Shown in pieces: positions 10,816-12,396 of a DNA stretch of 64,000 bases (position 1 is the stretch's first letter; each line of letters begins with the position of its first letter). Below the pieces are notes generated by a model. That model saw only the letters and a program-made list of their open reading frames with translations, did not search any database and was not told where the DNA came from. The stretch spans positions 9,442-73,441 of the forward strand of contig JANRBR010000028.1 in the NCBI GenBank assembly GCA_030727405.1. Reading direction: 5' to 3'. A program made the translations under genes and the position numbers. This stretch comes from Crocinitomicaceae bacterium (lineage in GTDB: Bacteria; Bacteroidota; Bacteroidia; Flavobacteriales_D; Crocinitomicaceae).

Positions 10816-11046
10816 CTATTTCTCATAAATCAACTGACACACCTTGTCCATCGCTTTAAATAGCGCGACATCAAATTTCGGGGATGTGGTCAATTTGGTC
10901 ATGGATGAAACGGCATCGAAGAGTAGTTCGTTTTCACGTTGAGGAATCCGTTCGATGAAGGTAATTTCCTTGCTTCCTTTCTGTGATTCCGAGACAATGA
11001 CTTCGTTGGTGGTCAAATCGATGGCAAATAATAGGGTCTTTTTCAT
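10816..11046 (-). CDS. hypothetical protein, 76 residues
   Basis: A small protein beginning MKKTLLFAID, with no signal peptide, no Cys and a mixed alpha/beta composition. I do not recognise it. It lies 21 nt downstream of the secreted HNH gene on the same strand, so it is probably cotranscribed. An immunity or accessory role for the HNH protein is possible from position only. The conventional start and plausible composition favour a real gene over the longer overlapping frame at 11043-11372, which is a shadow of the HNH gene. Confidence 0.5.
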   Translation of the reverse strand: MKKTLLFAIDLTTNEVIVSESQKGSKEITFIERIPQRENELLFDAVSSMTKLTTSPKFDVALFKAMDKVCQLIYEK

Positions 11047-11067
11047 TTTGTGCGAGCTTTTTGGATC

Positions 11068-11487
11068 TTAGTGAAGGTAGCAGCGTCCACTGGAATTCGT
11101 TGTTTTGTTCTTGCATCGGAAACCTTTTTGAGTGGTTCCGGTACATTGACGTGCTGTAGTAGTTGGTTGCTTCGTAGAGCCTCCATCACAGCAATTGGTT
11201 CCAACTGTTCTATCGTGTATTTTGCAAGTGCAGCTGTTCGATTTACTGCGGTTACAGGACATGCACAGCAATTGAATGTTTGACGCTTCACTGCTTCCGC
11301 CACACGAAAAAGGAGTGATGTGATCGTATTCCAGATTGGATGAACTCCCGCAACAATTACAGGTTCCGCCATCTCGGGTGAAGACGATTTGTTTCGTCGT
11401 TTCTGAAATATAGCGACTCTGTGAAAAGCCGGAAATGCTGATGAATAGGAGTGCGAGGAATACGCAAATTTTCTTCGGGGTTTTCAT
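11068..11487 (-). CDS. secreted HNH endonuclease with C-terminal Cys/His module
   Basis: 139 residues. A signal peptide (1-22, ending GFSQ) precedes a compact HNH domain with Cys43/Cys46, DH at 55-56, Asn70 and Cys75/Cys78, which is the complete set of zinc and catalytic positions. The C-terminus has a second module, CTGTT-x2-G-x2-C...CYLH (Cys115, Cys125, Cys136, His139), of the DUF5763 type found on secreted bacteroidotal proteins. The protein should cut DNA outside the cytoplasm or in the periplasm, for nutrient release, defence or antagonism. It sits between a YD-repeat-like secreted protein (3-nt gap upstream) and a 76-residue orphan. Confidence 0.85.
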   Translation of the reverse strand: MKTPKKICVFLALLFISISGFSQSRYISETTKQIVFTRDGGTCNCCGSSSNLEYDHITPFSCGGSSEASNIQLLCMSCNRSKSNSCTCKIHDRTVGTNCCDGGSTKQPTTTARQCTGTTQKGFRCKNKTTNSSGRCYLH

Positions 11488-11490
11488 TTT

Positions 11491-12396
11491 TTAATAATAA
11501 CTAATTGTTCGTTCCACAATATAGTATTTTCCATCATCATCAATGTACATTTTGATCCAATTTCCTGTGGAATCATATTCATAGGAGTTTCGCTCAATCC
11601 CCGTAATTACGCCATCACCATCTTTTTCGATGACCTCGATTTCATTCCCATTTTCATAGGTGTAATCAATGGATCCATCGGGTTCCCCTTCTTCGTAGTC
11701 CAACCAGTGTTCCAATGTTTTCTGTTTATTTACATATTGAAAGGTTGTTATTTCAGCCATTCCTTCCTCATTGCCAGAGCATTCATGCTTCACTAACTGA
11801 TTATTGCTGTCGTATTCGAAGACCTCCATTTCGGAGTAAGGTCCTTTTATGTATTCAATTTTAACTAGGTTGTTAAATGAGTCATAAGAAAATGTTTCTA
11901 TTGAAATGAGTTGATTGGATAGGTATTCCTTTTTTTTAACTAGTGTGTTTTTATCGTTGTAATAGTACTTAAAGTCTGACTCTATGTGTTTATCGCGAAT
12001 GATTTCCTTTGAAGAACAGATGTTATTCAGGGAGTCGTATGTAAAATAGTACTCAAGGTTTTCGTTTTTTATGTCATACACTACTCTGTTTTTGTCATCC
12101 AACTTTATGGAATAAGTAACGGAAGTCGTCCCGTTTTTAATGACCTTGGTTAATTCAAGAAAGCCAAATGTATTGAAATATAATTCTTCATCATGTTCCC
12201 AGGTATATTGCCAACCTTTGGTAGTTTTTACGAATTTGTTATTTACTTTTTCAGCAAGAAAGGAAGTTGTATGGATCTTTTTCACCTTTCCTTTTAGATT
12301 CCAACTTTCCAGATTATCAAAAGAAAGCGTAGGAATTTGTCCAAAAGCACCAAGGTAACAAAGGCTAAAAAGAAAGATCAAGGATCCTTTATTCAT
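11491..12396 (-). CDS. secreted YD-repeat-like beta protein
   Basis: A 301-residue protein with a signal peptide (1-19, ending AFGQ), followed by many short beta-strand repeats with alternating Tyr/Asp and Asn-rich turns (for example YDSLNN, YDSFNN, YDSNNQ, YDSTGN). This pattern is like YD/RHS-type repeats. The mature N-terminus has a WNLKGKVKKI segment common to secreted bacteroidotal proteins of this type. No enzyme motif is seen. The 3-nt spacing to the HNH gene implies cotranscription. A structural or surface role is likely, and a link to the nuclease is inferred from position only. Confidence 0.7.
   Translation of the reverse strand: MNKGSLIFLFSLCYLGAFGQIPTLSFDNLESWNLKGKVKKIHTTSFLAEKVNNKFVKTTKGWQYTWEHDEELYFNTFGFLELTKVIKNGTTSVTYSIKLDDKNRVVYDIKNENLEYYFTYDSLNNICSSKEIIRDKHIESDFKYYYNDKNTLVKKKEYLSNQLISIETFSYDSFNNLVKIEYIKGPYSEMEVFEYDSNNQLVKHECSGNEEGMAEITTFQYVNKQKTLEHWLDYEEGEPDGSIDYTYENGNEIEVIEKDGDGVITGIERNSYEYDSTGNWIKMYIDDDGKYYIVERTISYY

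What the first reader, a model, noticed from the sequence alone, without database searches (positions are those of the whole stretch)
10816..12396. Cassette with a secreted HNH nuclease, a YD-repeat-like secreted protein and a 76-residue orphan
Seen: a signal peptide directly in front of a complete HNH domain plus a second Cys/His module, with a repeat-rich secreted protein 3 nt upstream and an unrecognised short gene 21 nt downstream. Known: DUF5763-type tails occur on secreted bacteroidotal nucleases. Inference: either extracellular DNA use or an antibacterial or defence cassette in which the orphan might act as a partner or immunity protein.
Basis: partly seen in the sequence, partly recalled or inferred. 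Interest (0 to 1): 0.5.

Follow-up and report, generated by a model that had tools for sequence, protein, structure and literature searches.

The report
Secreted nuclease with small partner protein
Bacteria of the Bacteroidia class carry a two-gene cassette that seems to move between families: a predicted DNA-cutting enzyme made for export and, in every copy examined, an undescribed small protein right behind it that has no export signal and probably keeps the enzyme harmless inside the cell that makes it.

Summary
The 139-aa secreted HNH protein and the 76-aa orphan co-occur: the same 20 of 86 genomes of the genus and the same 22 of 395 of the class hold both. In 75 of 75 loci (63 distinct pairs) the orphan follows the HNH gene on the same strand after 8-39 nt; one genome has an extra orphan alone. 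The YD-repeat gene is a passenger: near the pair in 4 of 20 genus holders, and found without it elsewhere. Both genes are under purifying selection (median dN/dS 0.04 and 0.09), and a tree suggests transfer between families (p-AU 0.0008). The orphan has no leader, no significant Pfam, PHROG or PDB match, and a confident three-strand, two-helix model. Best reading: an exported nuclease with a dedicated cytoplasmic inhibitor, working like barnase-barstar or Bacillus NucA-Nin but with unrelated proteins. Nuclease activity and inhibition are inferred, not shown. Whether the nuclease feeds the cell or attacks rivals is open. An anti-phage role has little support.

The parts
11068..11487 (-). 139-aa secreted HNH protein, predicted nuclease (leader, HNH domain, second Cys/His module, Cys-rich tail)
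11422..11487 (-). leader (residues 1-22), read as signal peptidase I type, mature protein starting QSR
   Evidence: sequence; hydrophobic leader by a simple rule in 62 of 63 distinct copies, the 63rd (L077) mis-cut by the script and normal
11236..11361 (-). HNH domain, residues 43-84, with Cys pairs C43/C46 and C75/C78 and D55-H56, N70, N79
11188..11232 (-). second Cys/His module, residues 86-100
   Evidence: Cys and His identical in 63 of 63 distinct copies
11071..11148 (-). C-terminal Cys tail, residues 114-139, DUF5763-like
10816..11046 (-). 76-aa orphan, proposed cytoplasmic inhibitor of the HNH protein
11491..12396 (-). 301-aa secreted YD/RHS-repeat protein; upstream neighbour in this genome, not part of the conserved unit

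Best explanation
A two-gene operon for an exported nuclease and its dedicated cytoplasmic inhibitor. The HNH protein is made with a leader, is exported and cuts nucleic acid outside the cytoplasm. Its zinc-type (CxxC) HNH fold could become active before export, so the orphan, made from the same transcript and without a leader, binds and blocks the precursor in the cytoplasm and is left behind at export. Shown here: a leader on one protein and none on the other, an intact HNH motif set, co-occurrence, fixed order and spacing, purifying selection on both, and a tree that suggests joint transfer. Inferred: shared transcript, nuclease activity, binding, inhibition, and the place of action.
For: Same 20 of 86 genus genomes and same 22 of 395 class genomes hold both; in the family sample the 7 genomes with a strong orphan match are the 7 with a full-length HNH. 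75 of 75 loci (63 distinct pairs) have HNH then orphan, same strand, 8-39 nt apart; 20 of 20 genus holders likewise, 16-36 nt. In the clustering of the window region and 49 loci, no other neighbour recurs in more than 9, and outside the window's genus in more than 5. Both under purifying selection. Leaders on the HNH proteins (median best 13-mer hydropathy 2.83), orphans lower (median 1.47, highest 2.16). Mature HNH is basic (median net charge +12 of 39), the orphan about neutral (median 0 of 42). Orphan profile: 0 hits at E 1 in 71 loci around other HNH, tail-bearing and YD proteins; 13 tail-bearing DRGH-motif nucleases share no flanking gene in more than 3 loci. The orphan diverges faster than the HNH (mean distance 0.41 against 0.27), as immunity proteins often do (recalled). 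Precedents: barnase could be overexpressed only with barstar, the gene downstream (PMC3001887, passages); B. subtilis nucA lies beside the gene of its presumed inhibitor Nin (PMC5758888, passages).
Against: No direct evidence of activity, binding or inhibition. The orphan is not acidic as a rule, unlike many DNase inhibitors (recalled). No fold match to any known inhibitor, which is uninformative either way. Genome G135 has an extra orphan copy with no HNH beside it (L140). Distances of the two proteins correlate only moderately (r 0.49). The HNH model was poor (pLDDT 50.6), so the active site was not checked in three dimensions. Linkage alone would fit any dedicated partner.
Confidence: 0.58

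Rival explanations
1. An antibacterial effector-immunity pair: the HNH protein is a diffusible toxin that enters related cells, and the orphan protects holders against toxin from outside as well as their own.
For: Patchy presence (20 of 86 in the genus), signs of transfer between families and faster divergence of the orphan, a spare solo orphan in G135. HNH-fold toxins with immunity proteins are described in polymorphic toxin systems, some as potential diffusible toxins (PMC3482391, passages).
Against: Nothing seen that could carry it into another cell: only leader, HNH, Cys module and tail in 139 aa. The nuclease is strongly conserved (65-96% identity over the best segment in 49 loci), whereas competition toxins usually diversify (recalled). 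Cannot be separated from the best explanation by sequence alone.
Confidence: 0.17
2. The orphan is an export, folding or assembly factor, or a regulator, of the HNH protein and not an inhibitor.
For: Strict linkage fits any dedicated partner; cytoplasmic location fits an export factor.
Against: The 13 tail-bearing DRGH-motif nucleases that were checked have no such shared partner. Predicted fold is strand-strand-strand-helix-helix, no helix-turn-helix as I read it.
Confidence: 0.15
3. An intracellular toxin-antitoxin or anti-phage defence module.
For: Some copies lie beside defence genes: type IIG restriction genes in 3 loci (L073, L107, L110), KwaAB in L091, and among the 105 neighbours scanned single matches to a DRT reverse transcriptase (E 8e-146) and to PDC-S14 (E 6e-86), loci not traced. 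Toxin-antitoxin-like genes flank it in the window's genus (named by my reading). No background rate was measured.
Against: Leader on the nuclease; PADLOC matches of the HNH are weak domain hits (best E 9e-6) and the orphan has none; no orphan in viral contigs or phage records.
Confidence: 0.06
4. A three-gene cassette in which the secreted YD-repeat protein is a carrier or scaffold of the nuclease.
For: 3-nt spacing in the window; 4-nt overlap of YD and HNH genes in L068 and L072.
Against: YD gene in the fetched flank of only 4 of 20 genus holders, one of them with two other genes between (the flank is cut short by contig ends in some); YD relatives occur in genomes without the full-length HNH protein.
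Confidence: 0.04

Closest known systems
Barnase-barstar (Bacillus)
   Same: Exported small nuclease followed by the gene for an inhibitor of its intracellular activity (PMC3001887, passages)
   Different: Barnase is an RNase of another fold (BECR, PMC3482391 table passage); no PDB sequence, barstar included, is significantly related to the orphan
Bacillus subtilis NucA-Nin
   Same: Nuclease gene beside the gene of its presumed inhibitor (PMC5758888, passages)
   Different: NucA is a glutamate-dependent beta-beta-alpha nuclease, not a Cys-rich HNH of PF01844 type; no sequence link of the orphan to Nin, whose structure is in the PDB
Anabaena NucA-NuiA
   Same: Non-specific nuclease with a signal peptide and a competitive protein inhibitor (PMC5758888 and PMC4890671, passages)
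   Different: Other nuclease family; no sequence link of the orphan to NuiA
Tox-HNH polymorphic toxins with immunity proteins
   Same: HNH nuclease followed by a small candidate immunity gene (PMC3482391, passages)
   Different: No trafficking domain, repeats or processing peptidase found in the 139 aa; no Imm family among the orphan's Pfam matches
DRGH-motif (NUC1-type, from recall) secreted nucleases with the same Cys tail (L018, L019, L023 and others)
   Same: Leader and the same C-terminal Cys tail
   Different: Different catalytic domain, no conserved partner gene seen in 13 loci

Membership tests
HNH endonuclease (PF01844) | Score above the Pfam cut-off and the DH...N...N residues with two CxxC pairs | tested here: met
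   39.1 bits against 21.4; 39 of 39 aligned members match; D55, H56, N70, N79, C43, C46, C78 in 63 of 63 distinct copies, C75 in 62 of 63
DUF5763 (PF19067) | Profile match of the C-terminal tail | tested here: inconclusive
   Window copy none; 7 of 39 members, best E 0.0038
RHS/YD repeat (PF05593) | Repeat match above cut-off in the 301-aa protein | tested here: met
   30.4 bits against 22, 2 stretches
Barnase-barstar | Barnase-type RNase as the secreted partner | tested here: not met
   Secreted partner is HNH
Barnase-barstar | Barstar-fold inhibitor | tested here: inconclusive
   Not in the listed fold matches, best VIA Z 3.7 over 41 residues
Secreted nuclease with cytoplasmic inhibitor (functional class) | Leader on the nuclease, none on the partner, adjacent genes | tested here: met
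   (leader by hydropathy and reading, no dedicated program)
Secreted nuclease with cytoplasmic inhibitor (functional class) | Partner binds and inhibits the nuclease | not testable with these tools
   Needs protein work
Polymorphic toxin system (Tox-HNH) | N-terminal trafficking region or repeats ahead of a C-terminal toxin domain | tested here: not met
   139 aa with leader, HNH, Cys module and tail only
Polymorphic toxin system (Tox-HNH) | Immunity gene of a known Imm family | tested here: not met
   20 insignificant Pfam matches (best E 0.016) among 42 orphan members, none an Imm family
Known anti-phage defence system | PADLOC system genes | tested here: not met
   Orphan and YD none; HNH weak domain hits only, best E 9e-6

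The most novel reading that the evidence does not exclude
The orphan is the founding member of an undescribed protein inhibitor family with its own small alpha-beta fold, and the pair is a horizontally moving nuclease-inhibitor (or toxin-immunity) cassette of Bacteroidia, in which a zinc HNH enzyme was recruited for work outside the cell, a role better known from other nuclease folds.
Probability: 0.4. Interest if true: 0.6.

Novelty: new variant of a known kind. Interest (0 to 1): 0.47.

Why it matters
If true, it explains a protein that had no significant match in the Pfam, PHROG, NCBIfam, PADLOC and PDB collections searched here, adds an independent case of a protein inhibitor guarding a cell against its own exported nuclease, gives a protein reagent against a zinc HNH nuclease (the domain type also found in IscB and Cas9), and supplies a marker of mobile extracellular nucleic-acid use or competition in Bacteroidia.

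Tried and rejected
Three-gene cassette: rejected by the distribution of the YD gene. Phage gene: no orphan relative among 71 pattern-matched stretches of viral contigs or in phage records; the 18 HNH relatives in viral contigs match within residues 15-96 only, and of 16 plasmid records with an HNH match none covers 80% of the protein (10 listed). Known fold for the orphan: Foldseek in PDB best E 0.25 and in BFVD best E 0.035, VIA best Z 3.7 over 41 residues; absence of a family there proves nothing. HNH structure: model too poor to use. A shared promoter: TAnnTTTG within 150 nt upstream in 11 of 44 loci against a mean of 2.9 (highest 8) in 300 mononucleotide shuffles, at scattered distances, and the full two-part motif in 1 of 44: left open. 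Weak orphan hits at E 6e-4 to 0.01 (L009, L138, L139, L141): L139 and L141 were read and look like chance; my print of L009 and L138 was on the wrong strand, so these two are unread. Phylum sample: 1 of 395 genomes, the window's own; all 20 non-holders listed there are of the same class, so it says little about other classes and shows the pair to be rarer in that draw than in the class draw. One clade per family: true for f19, not rejected for f1 (p-AU 0.28) and f5 (0.076), rejected for f22 (0.0008). Papers: DUF5763 gave 0 papers; listings for HNH, secreted nuclease, immunity protein, Bacteroidetes, signal peptide (10 papers), for secreted nuclease, intracellular inhibitor, extracellular DNA, HNH and for HNH endonuclease, signal peptide, Flavobacterium, extracellular DNase showed no title or abstract start about such a pair; full texts were not read, only passages of five papers.

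Full report
OBSERVATION. The region holds three minus-strand genes at the stated coordinates with 3-nt and 21-nt gaps. Pfam finds two HNH families above cut-off in the 139-aa protein, RHS repeats in the 301-aa protein and nothing in the 76-aa protein. PHROGs, NCBIfam and PADLOC give HNH domain matches to the nuclease; the orphan has none in PHROGs or PADLOC and one insignificant hit (E 0.19) in NCBIfam.

DISTRIBUTION OF THE PAIR. In the family sample of 120 genomes the orphan matched 8 (7 at E 6e-22 or better, the eighth at E 6e-4), and the same 7 hold a full-length HNH relative. With alignments of 42 orphans and 39 HNH proteins, 395 class genomes gave 24 with an orphan match at E 0.01, 22 of them at E 1e-30 or better, and 107 with an HNH match at E 1e-6, 22 of them full-length at E 2e-64 or better; the next best is 4e-21 and covers only the HNH core. 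The two sets of 22 are identical (at most 14 and 10 candidates per genome were scored, so a miss is possible). In the window's genus 20 of 86 genomes hold the orphan and the same 20 of 86 the HNH protein, adjacent in all 20 with 16-36 nt between them. Together these samples name 42 different holders. A scan of named genome contigs with the HNH protein returned 50 loci; 49 are full relatives and all 49 carry the orphan next to them, while the fiftieth (L115) shares only the tail region. Pooled, 75 of 75 loci (49 named, 26 of G handles; 63 distinct pairs, the window's included) have the order HNH-orphan on one strand with 8-39 nt between. The one departure is genome G135, which has the pair and a second, diverged orphan without an HNH neighbour.

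CONTROLS. Among ORFs of 70 aa or more in the window region and 49 loci, the next most frequent neighbour after the pair is in 9 loci (all of the window's genus) and outside that genus in 5. The orphan profile finds nothing at E 1 in 71 loci around other HNH proteins, tail-bearing proteins and YD proteins. Thirteen secreted DRGH-motif nucleases bearing the same tail (NUC1 type from recall) have no flanking gene shared by more than three loci. So the linkage belongs to this HNH protein and is not a habit of nucleases with this tail.

THE YD GENE. Of 120 family genomes 17 have a YD relative at E 0.001; of the 7 pair holders only G000 and G040 do. In G040 two other ORFs lie between it and the HNH gene, and in L068 and L072 a YD gene about 50% identical overlaps the HNH start by 4 nt. 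In the genus 4 of 20 holders show it within the fetched flank, which contig ends cut short in some. It is a neighbour at one variable site. At that site other copies have what I read as ParD- or ParE-like genes, or the DUF4494 gene on the other strand, next to the HNH gene.

MOBILITY AND SELECTION. Ten of the 20 genus holders lie at the glycosyltransferase/DUF4494 site and ten show none of those neighbours in the fetched flank. Two genus genomes (G850, G863) have the glycosyltransferase genes without the pair. A tree of 26 pairs splits four members of one genus of family f22 among other families; holding them together is rejected (p-AU 0.0008), while families f1 and f5 are not rejected (p-AU 0.28 and 0.076) and f19 is one clade. 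Caution: the records are nearly all metagenome-assembled, and titles such as Polynucleobacter (L069), Alphaproteobacteria (L073) and Bdellovibrio (L093) on contigs with this cassette look like mis-binning to me, so some apparent transfer may be binning error. HNH distances average 0.27 and orphan distances 0.41, correlated at r 0.49 over 325 comparisons. Among ten close relatives (45 comparisons) median dN/dS is 0.039 for HNH and 0.085 for the orphan: both are working genes.

NEIGHBOURS. Of 145 neighbouring ORFs listed for 40 loci outside the window's genus clade, 105 were scanned. Pfam families are mostly ordinary and recur in at most 6 of 105 (first 25 of 114 families shown). PADLOC finds a type IIG restriction gene in three loci (L073, L107, L110), KwaA and KwaB in L091, and single matches to a DRT reverse transcriptase and to PDC-S14. 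No background rate was measured, so I draw no defence link from it.

ANATOMY. The nuclease has a leader, then HNH residues identical in 63 of 63 distinct copies (C75 in 62), a second Cys/His module and a Cys tail whose Cys and His are invariant. In a few loci no in-frame ATG precedes the leader (L075, L107, L114), so another start codon would be needed there. The mature protein is basic (median net charge +12), the orphan neutral (median 0) and without a leader. The orphan model is confident (pLDDT 92.3, pTM 0.78): three consecutive strands and two helices. No solved or viral structure matches well and no PDB sequence is significantly related (best E 0.41). The nearest solved HNH sequences are IscB, Cas9 and free-standing HNH proteins (best E 3e-4).

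MECHANISM. A protein with a leader and a protein without one, encoded together in fixed order and kept together across families, are best explained as an exported nuclease and its cytoplasmic inhibitor. The layout is that of barnase-barstar, where overexpression of barnase required the downstream barstar gene (PMC3001887, passages), and resembles NucA-Nin (PMC5758888, passages). All activity, binding and inhibition steps are inference. The purpose outside the cell, food or competition, is not settled; predicted secreted nucleases are common in activated-sludge genomes, Bacteroidota among them (PMC11495043, passages), and HNH-fold toxins with immunity proteins are described in polymorphic toxin systems (PMC3482391, passages).

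VERDICT. A real, conserved two-gene unit, probably mobile, with an undescribed partner protein. It works, on this reading, like known nuclease-inhibitor pairs but is a member of none of them by sequence. New variant of a known kind.

Noticed in passing
L140 785-1033 (genome G135, contig C3): A solo, diverged copy of the orphan without an HNH neighbour, in a genome that also has the pair; it could be a kept immunity gene.
   Followed up: partly
L018, L019, L023, L025, L029, L030, L034: The Cys-rich tail of the HNH protein also ends DRGH-motif secreted nucleases (about 310-340 aa frames), so one tail serves two catalytic domains.
   Followed up: partly
L073 2805-5993; L107 2744-5938; L110 3-203: A type IIG restriction-methyltransferase gene lies directly upstream of the pair in three related loci (7-8 nt gap or a short overlap).
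   Followed up: partly
L091 7167-8725: A KwaA-KwaB pair lies about 500 nt downstream of the cassette.
   Followed up: no
L069 55-357; L056 9849-10049; L070 5794-5994: ParE-like or ParD-like genes (my reading) directly upstream of the HNH gene in the window's genus, and VapB/PIN-like genes past the glycosyltransferases in relatives but not in the window: a variable site.
   Followed up: partly
L115 5859-6228: A 122-aa secreted-looking protein with a short Cys motif and the same tail but no HNH domain.
   Followed up: no
L069, L073, L093: The cassette lies on contigs whose record titles name Polynucleobacter, Alphaproteobacteria or Bdellovibrio; mis-binned Bacteroidota contigs seem likely.
   Followed up: no
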